Positions 101 to 55,374 of a stretch of DNA of 61,265 bases are shown piece after piece; position 1 is the stretch's first letter; each line of letters opens with the position of its first letter. A program made the position numbers and the translations under genes. Source of the DNA: an uncultured Clostridia bacterium (GTDB lineage Bacteria > Bacillota > Clostridia > Lachnospirales > CAG-274); NCBI GenBank assembly GCA_944381435.1, contig CALWLD010000013.1, positions 1 through 61,265 on the forward strand, in the 5' to 3' direction. Below the pieces are notes generated by a model. It did not search any database and was not told the origin of the DNA. It saw only the letters and a list, made by a program, of their open reading frames with translations.

Positions 101-208
101 AATTAATGTATAAACTTAGTTTGTTTAATTAAAATTTGCATACGTTTTTTGTATTAAATTTTAGTTAAATAGCCTGTTTTTAAACACAAAGTGTTAAAAA
201 ATTGATTT
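101..208 (-). repeat. Dispersed double-hairpin element, copy A (reverse orientation)
   Basis: This copy starts directly at the TAA of spoIIIAH and runs in the sense of that gene. It contains the short hairpin (AACAC-UUU-GUGUU core, A/U flanks) followed by the conserved AACAGG... segment, the ATTTAATACAAAAA loop segment and a decayed right arm. It is the most diverged of the five full-length copies. Together with the insertion-sequence end it fills the space downstream of the operon. Confidence 0.8.
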
Positions 209-838
209 TTATTTTTTCATAGGGCTTATTCTTATTTGGTCAACGCTAGCTCCTGTTTTTCTTTTTATAATATCTTCTATCTGTGCAATTTCTGCCTCGC
301 TAAGCTCTGTTTTGTTAACAACAACATCTACAGTTTCATCATCTATTCTAACATAAACTTCTTTAAAACCTTTAGCTTCAATCATAGCCTCTGATGCTGT
401 TTCTTTTTCAATTCTTTCTTGAATTTTAAGCATTTCATCGGCAGCAGTAGCCTTTTTATCTTGTTCGATATTTTCGTTATTAATCATTTCTGTTAAAATA
501 TCTTTTTGTTTAGCCCTTGCTTGCTCTCTTTCTAGCTTAGCCTGAACAAAATAAGATGTATCGTTACTGCTGTTTACAAACACCGCTTTGCCTGCCTCGT
601 CATCTTCATCGTTAGATGCAACAGCCTCTGCCTCTACATTTTCGTTGTTTTCTTCATTATGTACTACCTCTTCACCATATAGGTCATAATCTGGCACAAG
701 CCCTGTTATATCCTCGTCATCTGTTAAAACTACTTCTGCTGTTTCTGTGCTATTTCCTACATAGTTTAAATATCCAGCAGCACCTACCATAACCACTAAA
801 GCTGTTATTATAATTTGATTTCTCTTAAATGCAAACAT
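209..838 (-). CDS. spoIIIAH: Stage III sporulation protein AH
   Basis: A 209-residue protein with one N-terminal membrane segment (about residues 9-27) followed by an acidic low-complexity linker, a charged helical region (about 98-150) and a C-terminal ring-building domain related to the YscJ/FliF fold (about 150-205). SpoIIIAH lies in the mother-cell membrane and binds forespore SpoIIQ across the intermembrane space, forming part of the feeding-tube channel needed for late forespore gene expression. It is the last of eight collinear spoIIIA genes. The ATG has an AAGGAGG site 6 bases upstream. The acidic linker is longer than I expect for the family. Its stop codon abuts repeat copy A. Confidence 0.93.
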   Translation of the reverse strand: MFAFKRNQIIITALVVMVGAAGYLNYVGNSTETAEVVLTDDEDITGLVPDYDLYGEEVVHNEENNENVEAEAVASNDEDDEAGKAVFVNSSNDTSYFVQAKLEREQARAKQKDILTEMINNENIEQDKKATAADEMLKIQERIEKETASEAMIEAKGFKEVYVRIDDETVDVVVNKTELSEAEIAQIEDIIKRKTGASVDQIRISPMKK

Positions 839-919
839 ATTTTGCCTCCTTAATAAAATTTTTTAAAGATACTGAAATAATTTAAGTATTACTAAAATAT
901 AATTTTAGCATTAATAAAA

Positions 920-1477
920 TTATTTCATTTCTAATACTTCTATTTTATGCATTTCAACACCTAATAATGCATTAGTTGCTTCAATTAATGTATTTTTTAT
1001 TTCAACATTACCTCCTCCTTGTGCTACAATTAAAACACCTGATATTTTAGGACTTAACTCTTTTAAAACAAGAGGCTCATCACCTGATATTTTAACAGTG
1101 CTAGATTGAGATTTGTCTGTTGTTATCTGTCTTTTATCTCCGTTTAAAGCCTCTTCATTTGTTGTGCCGTTTTCTTTTATGTTATCATCTTTAGTTACAA
1201 TTTCTTTGCCACTTTCTAAAACAATCATAACATCTACGTTGCCAACACCTTGCACTTTAGATAAAATTTCTTCTAGCCTTTTTTCTAGTTGTTTTTCGTA
1301 GCTATCTTCTGTTATATCTGTGTTTAAAGATTGTCCTTTATAGTCTATGCTTTTATCTTCTTTTTTATTACTATCAAAGATACCACTTATTATAAGTAGC
1401 ATTATCCCTAAAAAAATAACAAATAAAATATTATAGTAATTTTTTTTATCTTTAAATATGTTTCTAAATATGCTCAT
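920..1477 (-). CDS. spoIIIAG: Stage III sporulation protein AG
   Basis: A 185-residue protein with a cytoplasmic N-terminus, a single membrane segment (about 16-34) and an extracytoplasmic domain ending in the ring-building motif region. SpoIIIAG forms a large ring in the mother-cell outer forespore membrane as part of the SpoIIIA-SpoIIQ complex. It sits between spoIIIAF and spoIIIAH in conserved order, separated from spoIIIAH by 81 bases. The central segment (about 85-130) is rich in Lys, Asp, Asn and Thr and is probably the flexible insertion seen in this family. Start ATG is preceded by AAAGGAGAAA. Confidence 0.92.
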   Translation of the reverse strand: MSIFRNIFKDKKNYYNILFVIFLGIMLLIISGIFDSNKKEDKSIDYKGQSLNTDITEDSYEKQLEKRLEEILSKVQGVGNVDVMIVLESGKEIVTKDDNIKENGTTNEEALNGDKRQITTDKSQSSTVKISGDEPLVLKELSPKISGVLIVAQGGGNVEIKNTLIEATNALLGVEMHKIEVLEMK

Positions 1478-1509
1478 TTTTTTCTCCTTTACTGGTTTTA
1501 TAACACGGT

Positions 1510-2061
1510 TTAAATGAAGTTTATAACCACATTTTCTTCTTTTATACCATATAAATTAGCAATATCTTTTTTTATGTTATTTATTTCTTTGTTTTTTAAG
1601 CTTTCATCTTCATTAAAAGGCTTTACATATATTTTGTTGTTATTTTCTGTTAATGTAATATAAATTTTATCAATAGTTAGCTCTAAGTATTTATTTTCAT
1701 ATATTTCTAGCTCTATATCTTTTATTATGTATTTATCCTTTAATACAGTTTTTATTTGGCTTTTTATGTTCTCTTTAAATGCATTTTTTACCATCTCGTT
1801 TTGTATGTTTTCATACTTTTTAATATCTATATTAGCATTTTCTTTAAAATCTTCTTCATTAAAAATAGTTAAAGCTTCCACATTTTTTACGCTATCAAAT
1901 ATTAATCCTAAAGGCTTAATCATTACAAAGATAAGCATCATACCAAAAACTAAATTTATGTAAGAACGGTATTTGTTAGTAGGCAAAATAACCTGTATAA
2001 AAGACATAAATATTAAAAATAAAATAATATTTTTTATATAGTCATAAAAATAATTTATCAT
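1510..2061 (-). CDS. spoIIIAF: Stage III sporulation protein AF
   Basis: A 183-residue protein with two N-terminal membrane helices (about 10-28 and 34-54) and a soluble C-terminal domain of about 110 residues ending in the GIKEENVVINF-type beta strand typical of the family. SpoIIIAF is a component of the SpoIIIA secretion-like complex in the engulfing mother-cell membrane. It lies 12 bases downstream of spoIIIAE, and an AGGAGG site precedes the ATG. The position in the operon and the two-helix-plus-domain layout support the call. Confidence 0.9.
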   Translation of the reverse strand: MINYFYDYIKNIILFLIFMSFIQVILPTNKYRSYINLVFGMMLIFVMIKPLGLIFDSVKNVEALTIFNEEDFKENANIDIKKYENIQNEMVKNAFKENIKSQIKTVLKDKYIIKDIELEIYENKYLELTIDKIYITLTENNNKIYVKPFNEDESLKNKEINNIKKDIANLYGIKEENVVINFI

Positions 2062-2073
2062 AAAAAGCCTCCT

Positions 2074-3189
2074 TTATCCTGTTACGGTAAGCATAATAGC
2101 TATAAAAAATATAAAAAGTATTAAAAATATAACAAGAGCAGATAAAATAAGCTTTGTATATTCTCCCATTGTGTCAACGCAAGTTGTTATTCTTCTATCT
2201 GCTATAGGTTCTATTAATATAGCAGTTATTTTATATATAAGTATTATAGCTATAAGCTTTATTAAAGGCACAATGGAACAAATAATAATAGTTATTACTA
2301 TGCCTATAAAAACACCACTTTTTAAAATACTTACAAAATACATAATGCTATCTACAGCCCCTGTTATGGCATCACCTACAACAGGCACAAAGCTAACAAA
2401 AGTTTTTGCCGTTTTGTTTACCACCCCATTTAAGATAGGAGCCCCTATCCTTTGCATTGATATTATAAATCCTAATATAACTGCAAGACTTCTTAAAGAA
2501 AAATTAACAAGCCATTTTAAAAAATCTATAAGCTTATTTAAAACATCTTTAGGGGTAATATAGTTTATAATATTAAGTATCGCCGTTGCTGATAATAAAG
2601 GTACAAACATATTTTGCATAAAAAATGAAAGCACATTTAAAGATAACAATATAAAGCTACTAAAGATAGCCCCACTGCTAGTTGCTCCAGACATAAATAA
2701 AAGCCCAACAAGCATAGGCATTATACCGCTTATAATGTTAGATACGCTATGTATGGTATCATATAAAATAGAAATAGCTAAGTTAAAGCTTGTGGCAAGA
2801 AGCATAGCTATAACCATATATGTAGTGTAAAAACCTATTTCAGATACACCTTGGCTTTTAAAATTTTCTGTTAATATTTTAAAAAAAGCAGATAAAAAAG
2901 CTATTAATATTACATTTTTTATTATGCTAGAATTTATTACTATTTCTTCAAAAATAGCTTGTACTATGTAATTTAATATTTTAGATATGCTAAAATCTAA
3001 CCCTTTGCCAGATATAATATCCTTTACCATCTTAGAAAATTTAAAATCACTTTTATAAATATTTTCATTTATCAAGGTGTCATATTGCTCTATATCAAGG
3101 CTATTAAGCCCTTCTTGTAAATAATCACTTGCATAAACCTTATTATAAAAAACAAAAACAAAAAGTATAGCAATTAAAATCTTTTTCAT
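2074..3189 (-). CDS. spoIIIAE: Stage III sporulation protein AE
   Basis: A 371-residue polytopic membrane protein with a cleavable-looking signal (residues 1-20, ending YASD) and about seven hydrophobic segments from residue 85 to the C-terminus, including a conserved-looking SGATSSGAIFSS stretch. SpoIIIAE is the largest integral membrane subunit of the SpoIIIA complex and probably contributes to the membrane pore. It starts 10 bases after spoIIIAD ends. The site before the ATG reads TAGGGGG. Length is near the usual 390-400. Confidence 0.93.
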   Translation of the reverse strand: MKKILIAILFVFVFYNKVYASDYLQEGLNSLDIEQYDTLINENIYKSDFKFSKMVKDIISGKGLDFSISKILNYIVQAIFEEIVINSSIIKNVILIAFLSAFFKILTENFKSQGVSEIGFYTTYMVIAMLLATSFNLAISILYDTIHSVSNIISGIMPMLVGLLFMSGATSSGAIFSSFILLSLNVLSFFMQNMFVPLLSATAILNIINYITPKDVLNKLIDFLKWLVNFSLRSLAVILGFIISMQRIGAPILNGVVNKTAKTFVSFVPVVGDAITGAVDSIMYFVSILKSGVFIGIVITIIICSIVPLIKLIAIILIYKITAILIEPIADRRITTCVDTMGEYTKLILSALVIFLILFIFFIAIMLTVTG

Positions 3190-3199
3190 ATAGTACCCC

Positions 3200-3586
3200 C
3201 TAAGGCATAAGGCTTGTTATCAAGCTTAATAACCTTGTAATTATAGGTATAGATATAAACATAATAAGCACCTTTCCTGCTAGCTCTATTTTAGATGCAA
3301 TAGCACCCTCTCCAGCATCTATACAAATCTGGGAAGAAAATTCACATATATAAGATATACCTATTATTTTTAATATAACACCTATATGCTCTATACCTAT
3401 ATCTAGCATAGACACTATATCTAGTATAGAGTTTAAAACTTCTTCTAATGTAGGCATAATAAGCATAAACATTATTACCCCTGTAACAATAGCTATCATA
3501 ACAGACATATTAGCCATTTGTGGCTTTACAATCAAAATAGCTATTACACCTATAATTGCTATTATGCATATTTTTAAAATATCCAT
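3200..3586 (-). CDS. spoIIIAD: Stage III sporulation protein AD
   Basis: A 128-residue hydrophobic protein with about four membrane segments. The central IEHIGVILKIIGISYICEFSS-like region with Glu and Cys is characteristic of the family. It is a small integral membrane subunit of the SpoIIIA channel and is sequence-related to SpoIIIAC. An AGGAGGTGG site precedes the ATG. It is transcribed directly after spoIIIAC, with an 18-base gap. Confidence 0.93.
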   Translation of the reverse strand: MDILKICIIAIIGVIAILIVKPQMANMSVMIAIVTGVIMFMLIMPTLEEVLNSILDIVSMLDIGIEHIGVILKIIGISYICEFSSQICIDAGEGAIASKIELAGKVLIMFISIPIITRLLSLITSLMP

Positions 3587-3604
3587 TTTCCACCTCCTAA
3601 AAGG

Positions 3605-3799
3605 CTAAAGGCTAAAAAGGGTTTGTACCGTTTCAAAAAGCTCACTTATGTACTGTATAACCCAAAATAAAACTACAACCAAGCCTGCTAAAGTTGTTAG
3701 CATAGCTTGCTCTTCTCTGCCCGCTCTTATAAGCACCTGATTTAAAACAGATACCAAAATACCAACTGCTGCTATTTGAAAAATAACTGTAACGTCCAT
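3605..3799 (-). CDS. spoIIIAC: Stage III sporulation protein AC
   Basis: A 64-residue protein with two membrane helices separated by a short polar loop (LIRAGREEQA), which is the family hallmark. It is the smallest membrane subunit of the SpoIIIA complex. The length matches the usual 64-68 residues. It starts 9 bases after spoIIIAB stops and has an AGGTGGA site. Confidence 0.94.
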   Translation of the reverse strand: MDVTVIFQIAAVGILVSVLNQVLIRAGREEQAMLTTLAGLVVVLFWVIQYISELFETVQTLFSL

Positions 3800-3808
3800 A
3801 ATCCACCT

Positions 3809-4327
3809 CTAAATCAATAATATTATTATCATTAGTCCTGACAAGAAACCTAAACTTTGATACATTTTAAAAGTTTTACTTTTTTCTATATTTATATTTT
3901 TTACTGCATTATCTATATAATCTATAACTAGGTTTAAACCTTCTATGTTAAAGCTTCTGTCTATTGAGCCAATTATTTTACCAACAAGAGCTATGTTTTC
4001 TATATCTTCTTTTATAAGATAAGTATCTAGGCTATCATTTTTTATAGCATCTTCCCATAAGATAGCTAGCTCTTCTCCCCTTCTTTCTTCTAAATTTTTT
4101 CTAAATTTTATAAATATATTTTTTATAGGCTTGTCTAAATTTTTTTCAATATTTAACAAAGCCTCATTTAAGCTAGAGAAAAATTTTATTTCAGAAGCTA
4201 GAGAAAGTATTGCTCTTTTTATTTCTAAAAGGTCGTTTTTTCTATAAACAGGCTTATAAGCATAGTAAAATCCTATTGTAGAAAAACCTATTAAAATAAT
4301 AACACTTGCAAATATTTTTATATACAT
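3809..4327 (-). CDS. spoIIIAB: Stage III sporulation protein AB
   Basis: A 172-residue protein with an N-terminal membrane helix (about 5-24), a cytoplasmic helical domain and a C-terminal hydrophobic helix (about 155-171). The layout resembles GspF-like membrane proteins of secretion systems, and the family is thought to partner the SpoIIIAA ATPase. The ATG directly abuts the stop codon of spoIIIAA (TAAATG), indicating translational coupling. Confidence 0.92.
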   Translation of the reverse strand: MYIKIFASVIILIGFSTIGFYYAYKPVYRKNDLLEIKRAILSLASEIKFFSSLNEALLNIEKNLDKPIKNIFIKFRKNLEERRGEELAILWEDAIKNDSLDTYLIKEDIENIALVGKIIGSIDRSFNIEGLNLVIDYIDNAVKNINIEKSKTFKMYQSLGFLSGLMIIILLI

Positions 4328-5272
4328 TTATATAACCTCTTTATATATATTTATTAAATTTTCGTTGTATATTTTATCTATACTACATATATCTTTCTTT
4401 CTATTTAATATTATATAGCGTTCAAAAATTTTCTTATTTAATATATTTTTTATGTTTTCCTTCTGTTTTATATCTTCTATGTTGTAAGCGTGTATAGTGC
4501 ATATAATTTTAACACCGCTATTAGCTATTTTTTCAATAGCCTCTATATCTTCTTTACTGCCTATTTCATCAACAGCTATAACGCTAGGCGACATACTTCT
4601 TAAAACCATAAGCATACCTTCATATTTTGGGCATCTATCTAAAACATCTGTTCTTTTGCCAACATCTAGCTGTATTTTCCCCATATATGTACCTGCAATT
4701 TCAGAACGTTCATCTATTAAGGCTACGTTTTCTTTTAAATCGCTAATATTTCTTATAATATCTCTTAAAAGGGTTGTTTTGCCACAATTAGGCGGTGATA
4801 TTATCATTGTAGATTTTATACTTTCACAATTTATGTAATGCAAAATATGGTTAGAGCAACCTTTTACCTCTCTTGCTATTCTTATATTTATAGAAGATAT
4901 GTTTCTTATGGTTTTTATTTTATTATCCTCTATGATAGCCTTTCCTGTTATGCCTACCCTAAATCCTCCTTTTAATGTTAAAAATCCGTTTTTAAGCTCT
5001 TGCTCTAAAGCATATATAGAGTAATCTCCCATAGTTTCTATAGTTTGAGATATATCTTCCATAGTGGGCTTATATACATTTTCTAAAAATACACTTGATA
5101 AAGTTTTATCTTTTAAAACAATGTATTCCTTATCAAAGGTTTTAAAAATAATGCTTCTATCTAGCCTTATTCTTATTTCTTCTGCCTCTTCAAAATATTT
5201 ACTATCTATATCTTTTAACACCTGCTTTAAGTTTTTCCCAAAATAGTTTATAAGCTTGTCCTTTATAACCAT
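4328..5272 (-). CDS. spoIIIAA: Stage III sporulation protein AA, secretion-type ATPase
   Basis: A 314-residue cytoplasmic ATPase. The Walker A motif PPNCGKTT lies at residues 160-167, followed by ALIDERSEI and the Walker B-like VIAVDEIG. The family is related to type II/IV secretion ATPases and is thought to power the SpoIIIA-SpoIIQ channel. It is the first gene of the operon. The ATG is preceded by AAAGGAGGAA, and a sigma-E-like promoter lies upstream (5300-5329). Length is typical (about 305-335). Confidence 0.95.
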   Translation of the reverse strand: MVIKDKLINYFGKNLKQVLKDIDSKYFEEAEEIRIRLDRSIIFKTFDKEYIVLKDKTLSSVFLENVYKPTMEDISQTIETMGDYSIYALEQELKNGFLTLKGGFRVGITGKAIIEDNKIKTIRNISSINIRIAREVKGCSNHILHYINCESIKSTMIISPPNCGKTTLLRDIIRNISDLKENVALIDERSEIAGTYMGKIQLDVGKRTDVLDRCPKYEGMLMVLRSMSPSVIAVDEIGSKEDIEAIEKIANSGVKIICTIHAYNIEDIKQKENIKNILNKKIFERYIILNRKKDICSIDKIYNENLINIYKEVI

Positions 5273-5299
5273 TTTTCATTCCTCCTTTGTCTATAAAAA

Positions 5300-5329
5300 T
5301 ATATATGTTTTTTAAAAAATAAATATTAC
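5300..5329 (-). promoter_or_regulatory. Predicted sigma-E promoter of the spoIIIA operon
   Basis: Read on the minus strand: GTAATATT, 14 bases, CATATATA. The published sigma-E consensus is approximately KMATATT-N14-CATACAMT. The site is 28 bases upstream of the spoIIIAA start. The spoIIIA operon is sigma-E-dependent in Bacillus subtilis. The assignment here rests on the match alone. Confidence 0.5.
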
Positions 5330-5359
5330 TTTTTTTTATTATTTTTTATTGTAAAATTA

Positions 5360-5388
5360 TTGAAAAAAATGTAAATTTATTATAAAAT
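5360..5388 (+). promoter_or_regulatory. Predicted sigma-A promoter for DUF4321-maf
   Basis: TTGAAA, 17 bases, TAAAAT, ending about 40 bases before the DUF4321 start. It is divergent from the spoIIIA promoter. Confidence 0.5.
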
Positions 5389-5430
5389 ATAAATTGATGT
5401 GTCTTAAACTTATTAAAAGGGGTTGATTTT

Positions 5431-5688: not shown

Positions 5689-5700
5689 AGGTGGTTTGGT

Positions 5701-6291
5701 ATGAAAAAAATTATATTGGCATCGTCTTCTCCTAGAAGATGTGCTTTGTTAAACCAAATGGGTATACAGTTTGATATAATCCCTAGTGATATAGATGAAG
5801 ATAAATTTAATCATTTAAAGGGTAGTGAGCTTGTAAAAACCCTTTCTTTAGAAAAAGCTAAAAATATTTTTAATAAAATAAAAAAAGAAAATAATGTTTG
5901 TGTAATAGGTTGCGACACAATAGTTTCTATAAACGATAAAATACTTGGAAAGCCAAAAGATAAAAATGAAGCCCTTGATATGCTTTTAGAGCTAAACAAC
6001 AATATGCATACAGTTTTTACAGGTCTTACTGTCATAGGCTTTTCTAACAGCTCTTACTTTGAAGAGACAATTTGCTCTTCTTCAAATGTATATTTTTCTG
6101 ATTTTTCTAAAGATGAGCTTTTATCTTATGTAAATACTTTAGAGCCTATGGATAAGGCAGGAGCTTATGGCATACAAGGAAAAGGTGGTTTTTTAGTATC
6201 TAAAATAGACGGTGATTTTTATTCTATTATGGGGCTACCTATAAATAAGCTTTATAACTTATTAAATAAATACAGTTTTTTACATAACTAA
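5701..6291 (+). CDS. maf: Maf-type nucleoside triphosphate pyrophosphatase
   Basis: A 196-residue cytoplasmic protein beginning IILASSSPRR, the Maf signature (SxSPRR), followed by CDTIV at about 74-78 and EPMDKAGAYGIQGKGG at about 153-168. Maf proteins hydrolyse non-canonical or canonical NTPs to NMPs and diphosphate and are linked to septum formation control. The gene lies 12 bases after the DUF4321 gene, with AAAGGTGG ahead of its ATG. It heads the shape and division block. Its stop codon merges with repeat copy B. Confidence 0.93.
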   Translation: MKKIILASSSPRRCALLNQMGIQFDIIPSDIDEDKFNHLKGSELVKTLSLEKAKNIFNKIKKENNVCVIGCDTIVSINDKILGKPKDKNEALDMLLELNNNMHTVFTGLTVIGFSNSSYFEETICSSSNVYFSDFSKDELLSYVNTLEPMDKAGAYGIQGKGGFLVSKIDGDFYSIMGLPINKLYNLLNKYSFLHN

Positions 6292-6412
6292 TCAATTTTT
6301 TGAACACTTTGTGTTCAAAAACAGGTACTCCTAAAATTTTTCAATTAAAATTTAATACAAAAACCGTATATAATTTTTAATTAAAAAATAAGTCGTACCT
6401 TAATTGTAATAA
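6290..6412 (+). repeat. Dispersed double-hairpin element, copy B (first of a tandem pair)
   Basis: It starts at the TAA of maf. The short hairpin has perfect 11-bp arms 6295-6305 and 6309-6319 (TTTTTGAACAC / GTGTTCAAAAA). The long hairpin pairs AGGTACTCCTAAAATTTTT... with ...AAAAAATAAGTCGTACCT, separated by an ATTTAATACAAAAA...-type loop. It is joined head to tail to copy C. Confidence 0.9.
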
Positions 6413-6535
6413 TCAATTTTTTGAATGCTTAGTATTCAAAAACAGGTACTCCTAAAATTTTTTAATTAAAATTTAATACAAAAACACGTATATAATTTTT
6501 AATTAAAAAATAAGTCGTACCTTAATTGTAATAAT
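6411..6535 (+). repeat. Dispersed double-hairpin element, copy C (second of a tandem pair)
   Basis: About 95% identical to copy B. The short hairpin core is GAATGC / GTATTC, so a G-U pair replaces A-U and a U-A pair replaces C-G relative to copy B. The long hairpin is intact. A third unit seems to start at 6534 (AATCAATTTTTA) but loses similarity at once. Confidence 0.9.
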
Positions 6536-6550: not shown

Positions 6551-6590
6551 AAATTTTTATGACATAAATATTATTATGTCATAAAAATTT
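6551..6590. terminator. 17-bp perfect inverted repeat, possible terminator after maf
   Basis: Arms 6551-6567 and 6574-6590 (AAATTTTTATGACATAA and its complement) with a 6-base loop. It could stop transcription from maf, but no clean T-run follows the stem, so the role is uncertain. Confidence 0.4.
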
Positions 6591-12510: not shown

Positions 12511-12555
12511 ATTAAGTGATACCTTAATTGTATTAATTAATTTTTAATACTTTTT
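12511..12555 (+). repeat. Dispersed double-hairpin element, fragment downstream of minC
   Basis: The segment reads as the right end of one element (ATTAAGTGATACCTTAATTG) joined to the left end of the next (AATTTTTAATACTTT). The same junction is seen before copy E at 55225-55260. No complete hairpin remains. Same orientation as minC. Confidence 0.65.
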
Positions 12556-17066: not shown

Positions 17067-17192
17067 TAATCAATTTTTTAAATACTTCGTATTCAAAAAC
17101 AGGTACTCCTAAAATTTATTTAATTAAAATTTAATACAAAAACCCGTATATAATTTTTAACTAAATAAATTAAGTCGTACCTTAACTGTAAT
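17067..17192 (+). repeat. Dispersed double-hairpin element, copy D
   Basis: It begins 5 bases after the DUF2085 stop, in the sense of that gene. The short hairpin core is AATAC-UUC-GUAUU. The long-hairpin arms contain AAATTTATTTA on the left and its near-complement TAAATAAATT on the right, a paired difference from copies B and C. Confidence 0.9.
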
Positions 17193-17196
17193 AAAT

Positions 17197-17231
17197 AAAA
17201 AGGTTGTAGAAATAAATTCTACAACCTTTTT
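17197..17231. terminator. Bidirectional terminator between DUF2085 and cyclophilin genes
   Basis: Stem AAAAAGGTTGTAGAA / TTCTACAACCTTTTT, arms 17197-17211 and 17217-17231. It ends in T-runs on both strands and serves two convergent genes. The core GGTTGTAGA is shared with terminators at 33279 and 38520. Confidence 0.85.
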
Positions 17232-17232
17232 A

Positions 17233-18054
17233 TTATTTATATTCTTCTATAACTATACTTTCTATAATAACATCTTCTACAGGTTTATCATTTTCATCTT
17301 TTTCTACTTTAGCTATTTTTTCTACAACGTCCATACCTTCATAAACTTGACCAAAAACAGTGTGTTGTCCATCAAGCCAAGGTGTACCACCAACTTCTAT
17401 ATATTTTTCACATACATTAGCAGGAAAAACATCTTTTACTTTAACACCGTTTTGCTCTTCTTCTTGGTTATCTATAAAATATTCTAACTCACTTTTAAAA
17501 GAGCTATCTATTTTATCATTTTGTACTATGAAAAATTGACTTCCGTTAGTATCAGGCCCACTGTTAGCCATACTTAAAGCACCTTTAAAATGTCTTAAAT
17601 TAGATAAACTTATTTCGTTTTCAAAAGGTTCGCCATATATACTCTCGCCACCCATTCCTGTACCTGTAGGGTCGCCACCTTGTATCATAAAATCTTCTAT
17701 AACTCTATGGAAAGTAAGCCCGTCATAATATCCTTCTTTAGCGTGTGTTATAAAGTTTTCAACAGCTTTAGGAGCTTGCTCTTTAAAAAACCTTATTTTT
17801 ATATCACCATAGTTAGTTTTTAAAATAGCTATTTCTTCACCTTGTTTTATTTCAGAAAACTGTAAAAGCTCGTTAGATACTTGTGCACTTGCATCTTGGC
17901 TGTTAGTTTCTTCTTTTGATGTATCTTCTATAGTAGATTCTGTTGTACTTTCTGTTGTAGATTCTGTTGTAGTTGTGCTTTCTTCTTTTTTACTACAAGC
18001 AACATTTAGCATCATAGAACCTAGAACTAAAAATATTAATAACTTCTTTTTCAT
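17233..18054 (-). CDS. Cyclophilin-type peptidyl-prolyl isomerase lipoprotein
   Basis: A 273-residue surface protein. A signal peptide ends at Cys20 (LNVAC), a probable lipoprotein site although the -3 residue is Asn rather than Leu. Residues 25-55 are a Ser/Thr/Glu-rich repetitive linker. The cyclophilin domain (about 70-270) has FHRVIEDFMIQGGDPTGTG with the catalytic Arg, and NSGPDTNGSQFFI. An insertion of about 30 residues (about 175-205) separates the FFI strand from the rest. It probably assists folding of exported proteins. ATG after GGAGGC. Confidence 0.9.
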   Translation of the reverse strand: MKKKLLIFLVLGSMMLNVACSKKEESTTTTESTTESTTESTIEDTSKEETNSQDASAQVSNELLQFSEIKQGEEIAILKTNYGDIKIRFFKEQAPKAVENFITHAKEGYYDGLTFHRVIEDFMIQGGDPTGTGMGGESIYGEPFENEISLSNLRHFKGALSMANSGPDTNGSQFFIVQNDKIDSSFKSELEYFIDNQEEEQNGVKVKDVFPANVCEKYIEVGGTPWLDGQHTVFGQVYEGMDVVEKIAKVEKDENDKPVEDVIIESIVIEEYK

Positions 18055-21592: not shown

Positions 21593-21604
21593 TACAAAAA
21601 AATC

Positions 21605-21699
21605 CTCATCTTCCGTAAAAACGGGGGATTTAGCACCAATGCTAAAAAGCTGGTTGCCGGGTATCATAGGGCCCTTATCCCTCCACCACTCTTGATAAG
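21605..21699 (-). promoter_or_regulatory. SAM-I (S-box) riboswitch aptamer
   Basis: On the minus strand the conserved S-box segments appear in order: CTTATCAAGAG, GGTGGAGGGA, GGGCCCTATGATACCCGGC, AACC, and a closing GATGAG that pairs with the opening CTTATC (P1). A variable stem AATCCCCCGTTTTTACGG lies in the expected P4 position. It controls metK by SAM-dependent termination. Confidence 0.92.
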
Positions 21700-21716
21700 A
21701 CATATATTACAAAAAT

Positions 21717-34324: not shown

Positions 34325-34456
34325 AGCCTAAAAGTAGCCGTAAAAATTAAATACAAAAAAACCTTGCAGACAGGCAAGGGTAAAATCTTCGATTCTAATT
34401 CCTCGGTAGGTTGCAAAAGCATTACGTAAAAACACCTACTGTCTACGGCACTTTTA
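34325..34456 (-). promoter_or_regulatory. L10 leader RNA
   Basis: On the minus strand the 5' untranslated region contains the L10-leader-like stems GCCGTAGACAGTAGGTG...CACCTACCGAGG-type pairing and ACCTTGCCTGTCTGCAAGGT with conserved loops. In Bacillota L10(L12)4 binds this RNA to repress rplJL. Called from recognisable elements and position. Confidence 0.75.
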
Positions 34457-34458
34457 AT

Positions 34459-34487
34459 ATAATACTATATATTTTTTAAAATGTCAA
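34459..34487 (-). promoter_or_regulatory. Predicted sigma-A promoter for rplJ-rplL
   Basis: TTGACA, 17 bases, TATTAT on the minus strand, a few bases upstream of the L10 leader. Confidence 0.75.
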
Positions 34488-48907: not shown

Positions 48908-50188
48908 TTAACCTTCTATATTTTCTATATTATCATCTTCTTTTATGTTTGTAAAAACTAAAAGCTTTTCTATCCTATTTTTTTCTATTTCTTCAACAAT
49001 AAATTTAACGTTACCTATTTTTATAGAATCTTTTTTATCTGGAAATTTGCCAAAAGTCTCAATAACAAAACCACCTATAGAATCAAAATCTTCAGATTCA
49101 AAGTTAGTACCTAGAGATTCATTTACATCTTCTATTTTTGTTGAGCCTAACACAACATATTCATTTTCTTTCATAACTTTTATTTCTTCGTCGTGTTCGT
49201 CATATTCATCAGCTAAATCCCCTACTATTTCTTCTAGCATATCCTCTAATGTAACAATGCCAGATGTACCGCCATATTCATCTAAGATAATAGCCATAGG
49301 TATCCTGTTTATACGCATTTCTGCAAAAAGCTCTCTTAAGCATTTAGATTCATAAGTGAAGAAAGGCTCTCGCATATAATCACGAATGTTAAATTCTTTA
49401 TTTTTATCTACAAATAACAAATCTTTTAAAGATATTATACCAACTATGTTATCAATAGATTCTTCATATACAGGCATTCTTGAGCAAGTTTCTTTTTTAA
49501 ATAAAGCAGTAAGCTCATCATAGCTAGCACATACATTAATAGCTATAATATCTGTTCTTGGCACCATAACATCTTCTGCATCACTATTTGCAAAGTAAAC
49601 AACATTATTTATCATTTCCCTTTCATCTATCTCTAAAACCCCTTCTTCGTGGCTAACATTAACCATAGTTAAAAGCTCAGATTCTGTGATAGTTGGTGTT
49701 TTTTCATCTTTTTTAACACCAAGTAACCTTAACAAGAAACCTGTTATAAAGTTTAAAACTATTATAAAAGGCGTAAAAATTATCATACAAAATTTAATAA
49801 TTTTTACAACAGAAAGAGAAATTTTTTCTGCGTTTTTAGTAGCAAAAGTTTTAGGCGTTATCTCACCAAAAATAAGGATAACTATGGTAAGAACAACTGT
49901 GGCAATCCCAACACCGCTAGAGCCAACCTTTTCTACGATAATAGCTGTTGCAAGAGAAGATGCACCGATGTTTACAAGGTTGTTACCTATTAATATAGCG
50001 CTTAAAAGCTTCCCTGGGTCTTCTATAACGTTTTGTATAAGCTTTGCATTTTTTATATTTTCATCAACCATCGTTCTAAGCCTTATCTTGCTAATAGATG
50101 TAAGAGCTGTCTCTGACATAGAGAAAAAAGCTGATAAAACAATCAAAATAGCTAAAATTATAAACTGCAAACTGGCATAAGAATCCAA
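48908..50188 (-). CDS. CNNM/CorC (hemolysin C) family membrane protein
   Basis: A 426-residue protein: N-terminal DUF21 membrane domain (about 1-190, four helices), a CBS pair (about 205-330, with VMVPRTDI and GIVTLEDMLEEIVGDL), and a C-terminal CorC/HlyC domain (about 340-415). Family members are linked to magnesium or cobalt efflux. Start TTG, with AGGAGTG upstream. Transcribed leftward, with its own terminator. Confidence 0.9.
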   Translation of the reverse strand: MDSYASLQFIILAILIVLSAFFSMSETALTSISKIRLRTMVDENIKNAKLIQNVIEDPGKLLSAILIGNNLVNIGASSLATAIIVEKVGSSGVGIATVVLTIVILIFGEITPKTFATKNAEKISLSVVKIIKFCMIIFTPFIIVLNFITGFLLRLLGVKKDEKTPTITESELLTMVNVSHEEGVLEIDEREMINNVVYFANSDAEDVMVPRTDIIAINVCASYDELTALFKKETCSRMPVYEESIDNIVGIISLKDLLFVDKNKEFNIRDYMREPFFTYESKCLRELFAEMRINRIPMAIILDEYGGTSGIVTLEDMLEEIVGDLADEYDEHDEEIKVMKENEYVVLGSTKIEDVNESLGTNFESEDFDSIGGFVIETFGKFPDKKDSIKIGNVKFIVEEIEKNRIEKLLVFTNIKEDDNIENIEG

Positions 50189-50546
50189 ATAAAATCACAC
50201 TCCTAAAATTTAATTATAATAATGATATGTATTATACCATATAATTTTTATAATTAAAAGCCTTAAATTAAGCAATTTTAAACATATTTAGCCCTTTTTT
50301 TAAGTTTAATACAATTTTTAATTATTAATTTCATACAATTTTTTTAATTAAAATGCTATGTTTTAGGTATTTTTTATTTTTGATAATATATTTATATTTT
50401 TTGTTTTTCTTTATTTTTTAACCTTTTTCTTTTGTTTACTTTTATTTTCTTTTATTTTCATAATATGAAATAATAAATTATTGACATTGGTTAATCATAT
50501 ATTTAAAATTATAGTATAATTTATTTTATTTTTTTAGGAGGCTTAT
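50189..50546. other. Divergent gap between the CorC-type gene and degV
   Basis: A 358-base AT-rich region. The only clear element is the degV promoter at 50481-50509. The stretches 50280-50420 are T-rich with no structure I can support. Confidence 0.5.
50481..50509 (+). promoter_or_regulatory. Predicted sigma-A promoter for degV
   Basis: TTGACA, 17 bases, TAAAAT, 37 bases before the degV start. A second TATAAT at 50515-50520 has no matching -35. Confidence 0.65.
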
Positions 50547-51422
50547 ATGGCAAACTTTATTGTTTTATCAGATACTTCTTGTGATTTACCAGAAAGTTTA
50601 AAACAAGAATATAATATTGAAACTATCCCTTTTTATGTTTCATTTGATAAAGAAAATTATTTAAAAGAAAATATAGATATAAATATAAACGATTTTTACG
50701 AAAAAATAATTAGCGAAAAAACAATTCCAAAAACATCTCTTCCTTCTATGGAAGACTATTGTAACCATTTTAAACCTTATTTAGATAAAGGGCTTGATAT
50801 TTTATGCTTTTGCCTATGCTCAGACCTTAGTGGCTCTTACCAAAGTGCAGTAAATGCTGGTAATATTTTAGCAGAAGAATACCCTGATAGAAAAATATTA
50901 ATAATAGATTCTAGAAAAGCTACTGTTGCACAAGGATTATTAGTTATAGAAGCATCTAAAATGGAAAAAGCTGGCTTTTCTATAGAAGAAACTTACGAAA
51001 AAATGGAACAATTAAAAAAAGAAGGTATAATTGTTTTTACAATAGATACTTTAGAATATTTGCAAAAAGGAGGAAGGATAGGCAAAGCATCTGCCCTTGC
51101 AGGTAGCCTTCTTAACATAAAACCTATTTTGTTATTAAATGATGGGGTGCTAGAGCCTCATTCTAAAGTAAGAGGTAGAAAAAAATCTTTATCTGATATT
51201 TTAAAAATATTTAACGAATATGTAAAAGATGATTTAGATAAATATCAAATAGCAATAGCTCACGCTCATTGTAAAGATGAGGCTATAGAGCTTGAAAAAG
51301 CTTTAAACGAAAAATATAACATTAAGCTAAACTACCCTATATTTGATATAGGTGTAACAATAGGTGCTCATACAGGTCCTACTGCTATAGGTGTTGGCTT
51401 TATAAAAAAATATAATGCATAG
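50547..51422 (+). CDS. DegV family fatty-acid-binding protein
   Basis: A 291-residue protein with the DegV signatures SDTSCDLP (7-14) and LSGSYQSAVNAG, and a C-terminal IGAHTGPTAIGVGF motif. Bacillota DegV/FakB proteins bind a fatty acid that FakA kinase phosphorylates. AGGAGG precedes the ATG. The regulator gene begins 11 bases downstream. Confidence 0.92.
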   Translation: MANFIVLSDTSCDLPESLKQEYNIETIPFYVSFDKENYLKENIDININDFYEKIISEKTIPKTSLPSMEDYCNHFKPYLDKGLDILCFCLCSDLSGSYQSAVNAGNILAEEYPDRKILIIDSRKATVAQGLLVIEASKMEKAGFSIEETYEKMEQLKKEGIIVFTIDTLEYLQKGGRIGKASALAGSLLNIKPILLLNDGVLEPHSKVRGRKKSLSDILKIFNEYVKDDLDKYQIAIAHAHCKDEAIELEKALNEKYNIKLNYPIFDIGVTIGAHTGPTAIGVGFIKKYNA

Positions 51423-51433
51423 GAAGTGTTTTT

Positions 51434-51925
51434 ATGGAAAATGATATACTAGAGTTATTAGAAAAAAACAGCAGAATATCTTTTGATGATATGGCTAAAA
51501 TGCTTAACACAACAAAAGAAAATATAGAAAATACAGTAAAAAAATTAGAAGATAACAAAACTATATGCGGTTATACAACTCTTATAAACTGGGATAAAAC
51601 AGAAAAAGAAGGAGAATATATTACATCTTTGATAGAGGTAAAGGTAACTCCTCAAAGAGAGCAAGGCTTTGATAAAATAGCAAAAAGAATATATAGCTTT
51701 GATGAGGTAAAATCTTTATATCTTATGTCTGGTACATTTGATTTATTAATTGTTGTAGAAGGCAAAAATATTAAGGATATATCTTCTTTTGTATCTAGCA
51801 AGCTAGCTACCTTAGAATGTGTAATTAGCACATCTACCCATTTTGTGCTAAAAAAATATAAAGACCACGGGGTTATAATAGATGAAAACACACCAAACGA
51901 TGAAAGGATAATTATAACACCTTGA
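51434..51925 (+). CDS. Lrp/AsnC-family transcription regulator
   Basis: A 163-residue regulator: N-terminal winged helix (about 1-55, ISFDDMAKMLNTTKENIENTVKKLE) and C-terminal RAM domain (about 65-145) that binds an amino acid. Its stop overlaps the next start (TTGA), so it is probably translated with the aminotransferase gene and may regulate it. Confidence 0.88.
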   Translation: MENDILELLEKNSRISFDDMAKMLNTTKENIENTVKKLEDNKTICGYTTLINWDKTEKEGEYITSLIEVKVTPQREQGFDKIAKRIYSFDEVKSLYLMSGTFDLLIVVEGKNIKDISSFVSSKLATLECVISTSTHFVLKKYKDHGVIIDENTPNDERIIITP

Positions 51926-53079
51926 GCCTAGTTGCTAAACATATACAAGATATACCTTATTCTGGTATTAGAAAATTTTTTGATATTGCAAGCGAAATAG
52001 AAGGCGTTATATCTCTTGGTGTGGGAGAGCCTGATTTTAATACCCCTTGGGCTTGCACAGAAAAAGCAATATACACGTTAGAGCAAGGCAAAACTACCTA
52101 TACATCTAACGCAGGGCTTTTAGAGCTTAGGCAAGAAATAGCTAAATATATAAAAAATACTTTAAATATAAATTATTGTCCTAAAAGCCAAATTTTAGTT
52201 ACTGTAGGTGCTAGCGAAGGTATAGATTTAGCCCTTAGAGCAGTTATATGCCCTAACGATGAGGTGCTTGTTGTAGAGCCTTCTTTTGTATCTTACAAAC
52301 CTTGTATAACTATGTGTGGTGGTATACCCGTTGTTGTAAATACAAAAGAAGAAAATAACTTTAAGCTAACCCCTGAAGACATTTTGCCTAAGCTATCTAA
52401 CAAAACAAAAGCTATCATAATATCTTATCCTAACAACCCTACAGGTGCTATTATGGAAAAAGAAGATTTAGAAAAAATAGCTAATATATTAAAAGATAAA
52501 GATATTTTAGTTATTAGCGATGAAATATATTCAGAGCTTACTTATGAAGGTAAAAAACACACATCTATTGCACAATTTGAAGGTATGTATGAAAAAACGG
52601 TTGTTTTAAATGGCTTTTCTAAATCCTTTGCAATGACAGGCTGGCGTCTTGGCTTTGCCCTTGGGCCTAAAGATATTATATCTGCTATGACAAAAATACA
52701 TCAATACATTATAATGTGTGCCCCTACAATGAGCCAATATGCTGGGCTTGAGGCTTTAACCTCTTCTTTATCTAGCGTTGATAAAATGAGAAAAGAATAT
52801 AATATGCGTAGAAAATTTATGTTAAATGGTTTTAGAGAGATGGGGCTTGATTGTTTTGAGGCTTTAGGAGCTTTTTATCTTTTCCCTTCTATAAAATCTA
52901 CAGGGCTATCTTCTCAAGAATTTTGCAAGCGTTTAGTTTATGAAGAAAAGGTGGCTGTTGTTCCTGGCACTGCTTTTGGAGAATGCGGTGAAGGCTTTAT
53001 AAGATGCTCTTATGCCTATTCTATAGAAGAAATAAAAGAAGCTCTTTTACGCATTAAAAACTTTATAAACAAGTTATAA
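51922..53079 (+). CDS. Class I/II PLP-dependent aminotransferase
   Basis: A 385-residue enzyme. The PLP Lys is in SFAMTGWRLGFA-region (NGFSKSFAMTGWR), and SYPNNPTGAIM and VSDEIYSEL are the other signatures. It is similar to PatA/AlaT-like transaminases; the amino acid substrate is uncertain. Start TTG overlapping the Lrp-type stop. The Lrp-aminotransferase pair suggests amino-acid-responsive control. Confidence 0.9.
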   Translation: MSLVAKHIQDIPYSGIRKFFDIASEIEGVISLGVGEPDFNTPWACTEKAIYTLEQGKTTYTSNAGLLELRQEIAKYIKNTLNINYCPKSQILVTVGASEGIDLALRAVICPNDEVLVVEPSFVSYKPCITMCGGIPVVVNTKEENNFKLTPEDILPKLSNKTKAIIISYPNNPTGAIMEKEDLEKIANILKDKDILVISDEIYSELTYEGKKHTSIAQFEGMYEKTVVLNGFSKSFAMTGWRLGFALGPKDIISAMTKIHQYIIMCAPTMSQYAGLEALTSSLSSVDKMRKEYNMRRKFMLNGFREMGLDCFEALGAFYLFPSIKSTGLSSQEFCKRLVYEEKVAVVPGTAFGECGEGFIRCSYAYSIEEIKEALLRIKNFINKL

Positions 53080-53089
53080 GGAGAGAGTT

Positions 53090-55225
53090 ATGAGCTGTTT
53101 AGTTATTGCAGAAAAGCCCTCTGTTGCTAGAGATATAGCAAAAGTTTTAAACTGTACAAAAAAAGGCGATGGATACCTTTATAACGATAAATATATTATA
53201 TCTTGGGCTATAGGTCATTTAGTTACCCTTTATGAACCTGAAGAATACGACGAAAGCCTTAAAAAATGGACAATGGAAACCTTACCTATAATGCCTGATA
53301 ACCTAAAGCTAAAAGCTATAAAAAATACAAAACAACAGTTTAATGTATTAAAAAGCCTTATAAATTCTAAAAATGTAGAAGAGCTTATATGTGCAACAGA
53401 TAGTGGGCGTGAAGGTGAACTTATATTTAGGTATATTTATGAGCTTACAAAATGTAAAAAACCTTTTAAAAGGCTATGGATATCTAGTATGACTAACGAG
53501 GCTATAAAAGAAGGCTTTGAAAATCTAAAAGACGGCAAAGAATATGATAACCTTTACTTTTCAGCAAAATGCAGGTCAGAGGCAGATTGGCTTGTAGGCA
53601 TAAATGCCTCACGAGCTTTTACCATAAAGTTTCATTCTTTGCTATCTATAGGTAGGGTGCAAACCCCTACCCTTGCTATATTGGTAGATAAACATAAAGA
53701 AATACAAAATTTTAAGGTGCAAGAATATTTTGAAATAGAGGCTAATTTTAAAACATTAGATAATGGACAAACTTTTAAAGGTATATGGATAGATGAAAAT
53801 AACGAAACTAAAATATTAGATAAAGAAAAAGCTAATAATATTTTAGAAACAGTAAAAGAAAAAAATGGCATTATAGATAAAATAGAAAAAGAAACAAAAA
53901 AACAACCTCCACCTTTGTTATACGATTTAACAGAGCTACAAAGAGATTGTAACAAAAAGTTTTCTTATTCTGCTCAAAAAACCTTATCTATAGCACAAGA
54001 TTTATACGAAAAAAGAAAGCTTATAACATATCCTAGAACAGATAGTAGGTATTTATCTAAAGATATGAGCTCAAAGCTTTTACCTATATTAAAAATTTTA
54101 AAAAATATAGAAAATTATAGCCCATTTTTAGATTATGTATTAAATTTAGAAAAACTACCTATAACAAAACGTATAATAGATGATAGCAAGGTTACAGACC
54201 ACCACGCAATTATCCCTACCCTTTCTAAAGCTAATATATCATCTTTATCTAAAGATGAATTTAATGTATATGACCTTATAGTAAGGCGTTTTATAGCGGT
54301 TTTTTACCCTGCCTATGTTTATAACATTACAAAGATTATAACAAACATAGAAAACAATTTATTTTTAACAAAAGGCACAACAATAAAAGAAGAAGGCTTT
54401 ACAAAGCTTAATTTAAAAACAGAAAAAGAAAAAAAAGAAGACGAAATTTTACCTAATGTAAAAAAAGGACAAAGCGTTTGTAACAAAAAAAGTGATTTAC
54501 TTACTAAAAAGACTACCCCTCCAAAACCTTATAACGAGGCAACCTTGTTATCTGCTATGGAAAACGCGGGAAGGTTTATAGATAACGAAGATTTAAAAGA
54601 ACAATTAAAAGAATCTGGGCTTGGCACCCCTGCTACAAGAGCCTCTATTATAGAGCGTTTAATAAAAGTAGGCTATATAGAGCGAAAAGGCAAAAGTCTA
54701 ATACCTACAGAAAAAGGTATAAAGCTTATAGACATTGTGCCAAAAGAGCTAAAATCTCCTGAAACAACAGGCAAATGGGAAAAAGGCTTGTCTTCTATTT
54801 CTAAAGGTAATATGGAGCCTAAAAGATTTATGGATAGCATAGGAAGATATGTAAACTTTTTAGTAGATTATGCTAAAAATGCACAACAAAATATTATTTT
54901 TGATGTAGAAAGATATAATAATTTTAAAAAATCAGAAAAATATAAAGCTTTAGAAAAGTTTGGTAACTGCCCTATTTGTAATAACGATATTTTAGAAAAT
55001 AGCAAAAGTTATTATTGCTCTAACTGGCAAAGTGGTTGCAAATTTGGCATATGGAAAAATGCTTTAGAAAAATACAATATTTTTATTCATAAAGATATGG
55101 CAAAAAGCCTTATAAAAGATAAAACATTAAAAGATATAAAAATTATAGATTTTAAAGATAAAAAAGAAAAACTAGCAGATTTAACACTGCTTGATAACGG
55201 CAATATTAATGTAATTATAAAATAA
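53090..55225 (+). CDS. topB: DNA topoisomerase III
   Basis: A 711-residue type IA topoisomerase. The N-terminal TOPRIM region is CLVIAEKPSVARDIAKVL; ATDSGREGELIFRYI is the metal site; the nucleophile Tyr314 lies in ITYPRTDSRYL. The C-terminus has one zinc-ribbon-like motif CPICNNDI...CSNWQSGC. It unlinks DNA during replication and recombination. GGAGAG precedes the ATG, 10 bases after the aminotransferase. Confidence 0.95.
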   Translation: MSCLVIAEKPSVARDIAKVLNCTKKGDGYLYNDKYIISWAIGHLVTLYEPEEYDESLKKWTMETLPIMPDNLKLKAIKNTKQQFNVLKSLINSKNVEELICATDSGREGELIFRYIYELTKCKKPFKRLWISSMTNEAIKEGFENLKDGKEYDNLYFSAKCRSEADWLVGINASRAFTIKFHSLLSIGRVQTPTLAILVDKHKEIQNFKVQEYFEIEANFKTLDNGQTFKGIWIDENNETKILDKEKANNILETVKEKNGIIDKIEKETKKQPPPLLYDLTELQRDCNKKFSYSAQKTLSIAQDLYEKRKLITYPRTDSRYLSKDMSSKLLPILKILKNIENYSPFLDYVLNLEKLPITKRIIDDSKVTDHHAIIPTLSKANISSLSKDEFNVYDLIVRRFIAVFYPAYVYNITKIITNIENNLFLTKGTTIKEEGFTKLNLKTEKEKKEDEILPNVKKGQSVCNKKSDLLTKKTTPPKPYNEATLLSAMENAGRFIDNEDLKEQLKESGLGTPATRASIIERLIKVGYIERKGKSLIPTEKGIKLIDIVPKELKSPETTGKWEKGLSSISKGNMEPKRFMDSIGRYVNFLVDYAKNAQQNIIFDVERYNNFKKSEKYKALEKFGNCPICNNDILENSKSYYCSNWQSGCKFGIWKNALEKYNIFIHKDMAKSLIKDKTLKDIKIIDFKDKKEKLADLTLLDNGNINVIIK

Positions 55226-55248
55226 ATTAAGTGCTACCTTAATTGTAA
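55225..55248 (+). repeat. Dispersed double-hairpin element, right-end fragment after topB
   Basis: Starting at the last base of the topB stop: AATTAAGTGCTACCTTAATTG is the right end of an element whose rest is missing, directly followed by full copy E. This indicates a tandem pair here too. Confidence 0.75.
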
Positions 55249-55374
55249 TAATCAATTTTTTTAATACTTTGTATTCAAAAACAGGTACTCCTAAAATTTA
55301 TTTAATTAAAATTTAATACAAAAATCCGTATATAATCTTTAACTAAATAAATTAAGTCGTACCTTAATTGTAAT
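55249..55374 (+). repeat. Dispersed double-hairpin element, copy E
   Basis: Full-length, about 95% identical to copy D, in the same direction as topB and radA. Short hairpin core AATAC-UUU-GUAUU; long-hairpin arms carry the AAATTTATTTA / TAAATAAATT variant. The radA ribosome-binding site AAAGGAG follows directly. Confidence 0.9.

What the first reader, a model, noticed from the sequence alone, without database searches (positions are those of the whole stretch)
101..55374. Dispersed 3'-UTR element with two hairpins and compensatory changes
At least five full-length or nearly full-length copies (101-208 reverse, 6290-6412, 6411-6535, 17067-17192, 55249-55374) and two fragments (12511-12555, 55225-55248) share a ~125-bp unit: a short hairpin, then a long hairpin around an ATTTAATACAAAAA-type loop. 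Arm changes are partly paired: the short stem has C-G (A, B) or U-A (C, D, E) at one position; the long stem has TTTTTT/AAAAAA (B, C) or TTATTT/AAATAA (D, E). All sites except the minC fragment lie within about 5 bases of a stop codon, and all are in the sense of the upstream gene (spoIIIAH minus, others plus). This argues for a structured RNA acting in the 3' untranslated region, or a mobile element that favours such sites.
Basis: partly seen in the sequence, partly recalled or inferred. Interest (0 to 1): 0.75.

Follow-up and report, generated by a model that had tools for sequence, protein, structure and literature searches.

The report
Terminator-side mobile repeat with paired hairpins
A gut bacterium and its close relatives carry a tiny gene-less jumping DNA, about 125 bases long and folding into two hairpins, that tends to land right beside the natural stop signals of transcription; it is probably selfish DNA using safe landing sites rather than a regulatory RNA.

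Summary
The repeats are real. In the window's genome (2.16 Mb, 38 contigs) a covariance model finds 70 copies at E<=0.001 (two antisense self-matches dropped). The family occurs in 7 of 8 genomes of this unnamed Clostridia genus and in 0 of 53 outside it. Pairing is strongly supported by compensatory changes. The 'sense, at the stop codon' rule fails: 15 of 62 own insertion units start within 10 nt of a sense stop, and same-direction gene pairs hold sense and antisense copies about equally. What holds is a terminator-like hairpin beyond the 3' end (80 of 126 units; 26 of 122 on the other side). At ten own sites the element is missing in 56 of 57 orthologous loci. It is therefore mobile, shows no target duplication in own copies, forms tandem pairs and has a 53-nt minimal form. 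G.U pairs are not favoured over A.C. IS200 copies of the genus also sit just 3' of terminators (16 of 16 left ends) and resemble the repeat read on its other strand. Best reading: a non-autonomous element moved by an IS200/IS605-like transposase; the mobiliser was not found.

The parts
96..207 (-). copy A, degenerate, 112 nt, part of hairpin 2 deleted
   Evidence: model match 45.6 bits, E 8.8e-7; 0 of 500 shuffles reach its alignment score
6290..6410 (+). copy B, first of a head-to-tail pair; the insertion probably truncated the upstream gene by a few codons
   Evidence: 106.2 bits; relatives at this site lack the element
6411..6532 (+). copy C, second of the pair
   Evidence: 105.3 bits; fold z -8.3
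6551..6590 (.). hairpin just 3' of copy C
   Evidence: 17-nt perfect inverted repeat (pair I6)
12512..12555 (+). remnant: 3' end of one copy joined to the 5' start of another
   Evidence: 0 of 500 shuffles reach its score
17068..17192 (+). copy D, full length
   Evidence: 118.5 bits
17075..17099 (+). hairpin 1 of copy D
   Evidence: model structure columns 8-32
17101..17182 (+). hairpin 2 of copy D
   Evidence: model structure columns 34-115
17198..17235 (.). terminator-like hairpin just 3' of copy D
   Evidence: sequence and fold of the right flank, -21.5 kcal/mol over 75 nt
55222..55249 (+). 3' end fragment of an older copy, directly after the stop codon of the upstream gene
   Evidence: 0 of 500 shuffles reach its score
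55250..55374 (+). copy E, between clpC-like and radA-like genes (names from memory of the sequence and order)
   Evidence: 114.1 bits; site without element in 6 of 7 congeners

Best explanation
The repeat is a small non-autonomous mobile DNA element of about 116-125 bp. It is bounded by a short inverted repeat (CAATT...AATTG, or TAATT...AATTA) inside AT-rich tips, with a short hairpin near one end and a long, dispensable hairpin near the other. It enters AT-rich spacers as a simple insertion, preferably beside transcription terminators, on either side of them, with one fixed end facing the terminator. Shown here: mobility, restriction to one genus among the genomes searched, the terminator-facing bias, no target duplication in own copies, tandem pairs, conserved folding, smaller forms at several loci. 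On that strand it lies 3' of the terminator T-tract, as the IS200 copies of the genus do, and most copies end in TTGAT or TTGAC like them. On this view the hairpins are kept because they fold in single-stranded DNA, and nearby stop codons are a by-product of terminators lying just downstream of genes.
For: Mobility: 56 of 57 orthologous loci at ten own sites without the element; polymorphic sites between the close pair G005/G006; two identical 125-nt copies with unrelated flanks. Target: fold <= -8 kcal/mol in the 60 nt beyond the 3' end in 80 of 126 units against 26 of 122 on the 5' side and 45 of 179 A-tract background sites. 32 of 50 empty loci fold at <= -8 over 80 nt at the projected point, so the hairpin is often there before the element. 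Folding: 31 and 28 of 44 pairs with changes on both sides, slid controls collapse. Y1 likeness: 16 of 16 distinct IS200 left ends at host sites follow a terminator-like hairpin and T-tract; shared right-end TTGAT/TTGAC; the element's other strand has positive GC skew in 70 of 107 units beyond +-0.05 (p 0.0018), the same sign as 12 of 13 IS200 copies; one IS200 lies between a terminator and a remnant of the element.
Against: No Y1 locus of the 29 fetched carries the element's ends. Y1 presence does not track copy number: G006 has 39 hits with only a weak Y1 remnant, G002 and G007 have hits and no Y1 match, G004 has many Y1 genes and 7 hits; assemblies may miss repeated IS. IS200/IS605 elements have no terminal inverted repeats (PMC7290912), while this element has one of 5-6 bp. 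Hairpin sequences and the bases 5' of them differ from those of the IS200 copies. Hairpin 2 is dispensable. Some copies sit before ribosome-binding sites without a hairpin. The congeneric set shows a small 3-base direct-repeat excess (117 against 101 shuffled, 0 of 2000).
Confidence: 0.5

Rival explanations
1. A MITE or small mobile repeat moved in trans by an ordinary double-strand (DDE) or unknown transposase that reads the CAATT terminal inverted repeat and prefers A-tracts or palindromes beside terminators. The hairpins then matter little or are kept equal by arm-to-arm repair.
For: Terminal repeat with a compensatory change (C:G in 36, T:A in 19, neither in 6 of 61 parsed congeneric copies); hairpin 2 dispensable; no Y1 partner with these ends; a 53-nt form that looks like a template switch across hairpin 2.
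Against: No per-copy target duplication in own copies (k=4: 169 matches, shuffled 166); conserved internal loops and a bulge inside hairpin 2 are not expected if arms are merely kept equal; the BLAST at E<=10 listed no larger own element with these ends.
Confidence: 0.33
2. A structured RNA acting in the 3' untranslated region, copied around the genome.
For: Strong compensatory changes; 31 of 52 own units lie downstream of a sense gene, and several start right at its stop codon; often followed by a terminator.
Against: Sense and antisense about equal in same-direction pairs (29 against 37 over both sets); the hairpin faces the same end also in '--' contexts (right 12 of 17, left 2 of 17 own); G.U not favoured over A.C; sites not kept between species; long hairpin lost in spread forms.
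Confidence: 0.05
3. Insertion is nearly random and selection alone leaves copies between a gene end and the next promoter.
For: Divergent promoter spacers are rare (11 of 108 units with both neighbours); most insertions that damage genes or promoters would be lost.
Against: Survival does not explain why one fixed end faces the hairpin (80 of 126 against 26 of 122), in antisense positions as well. My background set leaves out 80 nt around elements and so is somewhat too low.
Confidence: 0.12

Closest known systems
PATEs, palindrome-associated transposable elements of IS605 type (PMC3119063 and PMC7290912, passages read)
   Same: Short, no transposase, near-terminal hairpins, no target duplication, core-deleted 'terminal-only' forms of about 52 bp, moved in trans
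   Different: PATEs have no terminal inverted repeats and their palindromes resemble those of IS605-type transposons; here there is a 5-6 bp inverted repeat and no resident Y1 element with like hairpins
SMR-A small mobile repeats of Haloquadratum (PMC3119063, passages read)
   Same: About 110 bp, terminal inverted repeats unlike known transposons, no target duplication, tens of copies, preference for palindromes, mobiliser unknown
   Different: SMR-A insert within the palindromes of PATEs and IS605 transposons; this repeat lies beside terminator hairpins and has an internal long hairpin with compensatory changes
Resident IS200 (Y1 transposase) of the same genus
   Same: Sits just 3' of terminator T-tracts; right end hairpin followed by TTGAT or TTGAC; same skew orientation when the repeat is read on its other strand
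   Different: Carries a transposase gene, different hairpin sequences, left end TCGCCGAATAGG or TATACAGAATACC, no CAATT inverted repeat
REP/REPIN with RAYT (abstract starts seen in listings)
   Same: Hairpin-forming extragenic repeats thought to be moved in trans by a Y1-like protein
   Different: REPs are 20-40 bp and GTAG- or CGTC-tagged; this repeat is about 125 bp without such a tag at the hairpin foot
BOX, RUP and SPRITE repeats of pneumococcus (PMC10969869 passages, PMC3049150 listing)
   Same: Small interspersed repeats that fold, in intergenic DNA
   Different: Other sequences and hosts; no fixed terminator-facing position was seen stated in the passages read
Group IIC introns (recalled)
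   Same: Insert just downstream of terminators
   Different: Large ribozymes with a reverse transcriptase; no such features here

Membership tests
PATE (IS605-type) | too short to code for a transposase | tested here: met
   53-146 nt copies
PATE (IS605-type) | no target duplication | tested here: met
   own copies k=4: 169 against 166 shuffled; small k=3 excess in the congeneric set only; empty site L240 reads as a simple insertion
PATE (IS605-type) | no terminal inverted repeats | tested here: not met
   CAATT...AATTG / TAATT...AATTA with compensatory change
PATE (IS605-type) | near-terminal palindromes related to those of an IS605-type transposon | tested here: not met
   IS200 hairpins are CCACC..GGTGG; none of 29 Y1 loci has the element's ends
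SMR (Haloquadratum type) | about 110 bp, terminal inverted repeats unlike known transposons, no target duplication | tested here: inconclusive
   size, repeat and duplication fit; compared only with Y1 loci of this genus, not with all transposons
SMR (Haloquadratum type) | inserts within palindromes of PATEs or IS605 transposons | tested here: not met
   lies beside, not inside, terminator hairpins
Non-autonomous IS200/IS605 derivative | a resident Y1 element with the same ends | tested here: not met
Non-autonomous IS200/IS605 derivative | insertion 3' of a short fixed motif on the active strand | tested here: inconclusive
   T-tract plus ATT on the other strand; exact junction uncertain by a few bases
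Non-autonomous IS200/IS605 derivative | moved by a Y1 transposase | not testable with these tools
   needs a transposition assay
Classical MITE | terminal inverted repeats shared with an autonomous transposon, usually with target duplication | tested here: inconclusive
   no larger own element with these ends listed in a BLAST at E<=10; no duplication in own copies; other transposase families were not searched
REP/REPIN | 20-40 bp, GTAG or CGTC tag | tested here: not met
   size and sequence of the copies
3'-UTR structured RNA family | sense orientation to the upstream gene | tested here: not met
   same-direction pairs 29 sense, 37 antisense
3'-UTR structured RNA family | G.U pairs tolerated more than A.C mismatches | tested here: not met
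   94 against 176 cells; 79 against 105 after dropping 7 of 88 columns
Rfam 15 families | match at the gathering score over a copy | tested here: not met
   whole window; loci L001, L009, L013 with E up to 5

The most novel reading that the evidence does not exclude
Transcription terminators are a shared, structure-defined landing site for single-strand transposition in this genus: an autonomous IS200 and a gene-less repeat both read hairpin plus T-tract as the target, so insertion follows the fold of the terminator more than its sequence, and terminators act as a genome-wide safe harbour for selfish DNA.
Probability: 0.3. Interest if true: 0.75.

Novelty: new variant of a known kind. Interest (0 to 1): 0.5.

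Why it matters
If right, it gives a well-populated natural case (70 copies in one genome, none to 70 model hits across one genus) of a minimal mobile DNA that finds terminators. It would make it directly testable whether terminator hairpins, or single-stranded DNA around them, are the true target of IS200-type transposases. It also warns that strong covariation together with a position after stop codons, the usual signs of a new regulatory RNA, can come from a mobile element whose hairpins matter at the DNA level.

Tried and rejected
RNAalifold on the MAFFT alignment gave no consensus structure. A covariance model was therefore built from 16 near-canonical copies with the structure of one fold, and other copies were aligned to it. 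Pair counts on such alignments lean towards the structure; shuffled and slid controls are given.

A target duplication (TAAT or longer) was suspected from copy D and rejected for own copies by the per-copy test. The earlier script mis-read right ends and was replaced, which parsed 116 of 141 copies; 25 were left out.

TnpB (IS605) as partner: PF07282 matches only in G003, which has no model hit. Y1 loci with the element's ends: none of 29. Other transposase families were not searched. Integron attC sites and group II introns were considered and dropped on recalled criteria. Viral contigs: no exact match to the conserved 3' end.

Own sites against relatives are 78-92% identical over the coding query, too far to fix the junction. 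In the G005/G006 pair, L142/L240 and L144/L243 were usable, L166 and L084 ambiguous, and L139/L244 was not an empty site.

Nine answered literature searches listed no paper that describes this repeat or, in what I saw, IS200 targeting of terminators. I saw listings, and passages of five papers only; the library lacks most subscription journals.
Full report
Observation. A BLAST of copy C against the window's own genome (2,156,706 bases, 38 contigs) gave 109 matches at E<=10, including fragments and antisense self-matches. A covariance model from 16 near-canonical copies finds 72 matches at E<=0.001 in 56 own stretches. Two are antisense self-matches (L128 plus, L006 minus), leaving 70 copies. 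No Rfam family covers the window copies at the gathering score, and none of three loci matched over its copy in a laxer search. The remnant near 12512-12555, the fragment at 55222-55249 and copy A each beat 500 of 500 shuffles.

Distribution. With the same model, 7 of 61 genomes (own plus 60 relatives) match at E<=0.01. All seven belong to the window's genus (G000 57, G001 20, G002 2, G004 7, G005 49, G006 39, G007 6; G003 none). None of 53 genomes outside the genus matches. Counts are lower bounds: 57 candidates were scored per genome with stricter filters. G003 has one weak BLAST match. An exact scan of named genomes for the conserved 3' end found nine contigs, all from metagenome-assembled uncultured Clostridia or Eubacteriaceae (records near the own genome may be left out there).

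Structure. Copies fold into hairpin 1 (11 pairs), hairpin 2 (foot AGGYAC/GTACCT, internal loops, a stem of about 25 pairs, a bulge and a conserved loop) and a terminal inverted repeat. In own copies 92.2% of cells pair (shuffled mean 83.4) and 31 of 44 pairs have changes on both sides. In congeneric copies it is 92.5% (80.6) and 28 of 44. Sliding partners by 1-3 columns lowers pairing to 34-58%. Counts are per sequence, not per event. In the congeneric set the outermost repeat pair is C:G in 36, T:A in 19 and neither in 6 of 61 parsed copies; in the own set it hardly varies (C:G in 50 of 55). G.T cells number 94 and A.C cells 176; after dropping 7 skewed columns of 88 they are 79 and 105. RNA pairing on this strand should favour G.U. 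On the other strand these A.C cells read as G.T, though strand-biased mutation could also cause the tilt.

Position. Merging arrays gives 62 own and 64 congeneric insertion units; 8 and 7 of them are head-to-tail pairs. With simple ORF calls, units with both neighbours split as own ++ 12, -- 17, +- 19, -+ 4 and genus ++ 17, -- 20, +- 12, -+ 7 (first sign: upstream gene relative to the element). Sense stops within 10 nt: 15 of 62 and 11 of 64. So the window's rule does not hold. The 60 nt beyond the 3' end fold at <= -8 kcal/mol in 40 of 62 own and 40 of 64 congeneric units; the 5' side does so in 14 of 62 and 12 of 60. Intergenic A-tract sites in the own stretches do so in 45 of 179, and any intergenic position in 620 of 2332. 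That background leaves out 80 nt around each element and is therefore somewhat low. About a third of the units have no such hairpin; some of these lie before a ribosome-binding site. The right flank reads about TAATWAATAAAA. In contig C5 two copies point at one terminator from opposite sides (C5:23672 plus, C5:23841 minus).

Mobility. At clpC-radA (names recalled) six of seven congeners have a short spacer and no element; G006 carries a different copy. For nine further own sites 50 orthologous loci were found. None has a model match (E<=0.1) within 300 nt of the projected point; the two matches among these 50 loci lie about 400 nt (L221) and 1300 nt (L193) away. By eye, the G005 loci at s5 and s8 hold pieces like hairpin 1, but no piece within -100 to +260 reached my alignment threshold. 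In 32 of the 50 empty loci 80 nt at the projected point fold at <= -8, clearest at s1 and s11, so the hairpin was often there first; at s7, and in most loci at s9, it was not. The close pair G005/G006 has shared insertions (L154/L167, L155/L163) and polymorphic ones. L142 against L240 reads as a simple insertion, and L144 against L243 as an insertion right after a stop codon TAA. Own copies show no target duplication (k=4: 169 matches, shuffled 166). The congeneric set shows a small k=3 excess (117 against 101, 0 of 2000), which may follow subfamilies.

Forms. Besides 120-127-nt copies there are 145-146-nt forms with an extra hairpin, 78-94-nt forms with a shortened hairpin 2, and a 53-nt form with hairpin 1 and the ends only, at five own loci. 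A pattern of the short form with up to 3 mismatches has 5 matches in the own genome and one each in G001 and G005, none in the other five genomes, and none for the reversed control. Hairpin 2 is thus probably not needed for spread.

Mobiliser. Y1 transposase matches were found in the own genome (5 places) and in 5 of 7 congeners (24 places). Among the 29 loci, 16 distinct IS200 left ends at host sites could be read: 13 and 3 more (L278, L288, L290). All 16 follow a terminator-like hairpin and T-tract (60-nt fold <= -14 kcal/mol). The other rows of those listings are repeats of the same places, ends that follow another IS200's right end, or chance matches. Twelve of the 13 have positive GC skew on the IS strand, one of them only 0.003. 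IS200 right ends read hairpin-TTTTGAT or hairpin-TCTTGAC. Read on its other strand, the repeat also follows the terminator T-tract, most copies end in hairpin-ATTGATT or -ATTGACT, and its skew is positive in 70 of 107 units beyond +-0.05 (19 of 126 lay within; p 0.0018). One own IS200 sits between a terminator and a remnant of the repeat (L051). That leading strands are G-rich here and that IS200/IS605 prefers the lagging-strand template is recalled, not tested. Against this reading: no Y1 locus has the repeat's ends, Y1 presence does not track copy number, the repeat has a terminal inverted repeat, and one subfamily lacks the TTGAT end (TAATT ends). The mobiliser remains inferred.

Comparison. 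PATEs (PMC3119063 and PMC7290912, passages) share absence of duplication, near-terminal palindromes and terminal-only forms of about 52 bp, but lack inverted repeats. SMR-A repeats (PMC3119063, passages) share size, inverted repeats, no duplication, copy number and a palindrome preference with an unknown mobiliser, but insert within palindromes. ISDra2 inserts 3' of TTGAT (PMC2806898, passages). The repeat fits neither the PATE nor the SMR definition wholly, so it is reported as a new variant of the small gene-less mobile repeats. None of nine answered literature searches listed a paper describing it.

Noticed in passing
G000 loci L051-L055; G001 L278; G004 and G005 loci L270-L293: IS200 copies of this genus sit just 3' of terminator T-tracts, often after ATTG: 16 of 16 readable left ends at host sites.
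   Followed up: partly
IS200 right ends, loci: The base 5' of the right-end hairpin and the last base of the end change together (CAAA with TTGAT, CAAG with TTGAC), as expected for a guide-to-cut-site pairing; seen by eye, not counted.
   Followed up: no
G004:C1:610915-614292 and 656487-659864: The clpC-radA region occurs twice, about 45.6 kb apart, with equal scores in this single-contig genome: a large duplication or an assembly artefact.
   Followed up: no
L129, L130, L133, L135, L137: The 53-nt form joins CAGGTAC to GACTTAATTG, the reverse complement of the other foot of hairpin 2: it looks like a template switch across the hairpin.
   Followed up: partly
window 21603-21701 (-) and 34347-34466 (-): SAM riboswitch and ribosomal protein L10 leader (Rfam).
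   Followed up: no
window 1-50: A hairpin with a T-run at the contig edge shares AAACCTCCTATGATAG with the IS200 leader region; may be chance.
   Followed up: no
window 6270-6291: The gene upstream of copy B ends several codons earlier than in relatives, apparently because of the insertion.
   Followed up: partly
G006:C7, locus L178: G006 carries a different copy of the repeat at the same clpC-radA spacer as copy E: an independent insertion at one spot or an old shared one.
   Followed up: no
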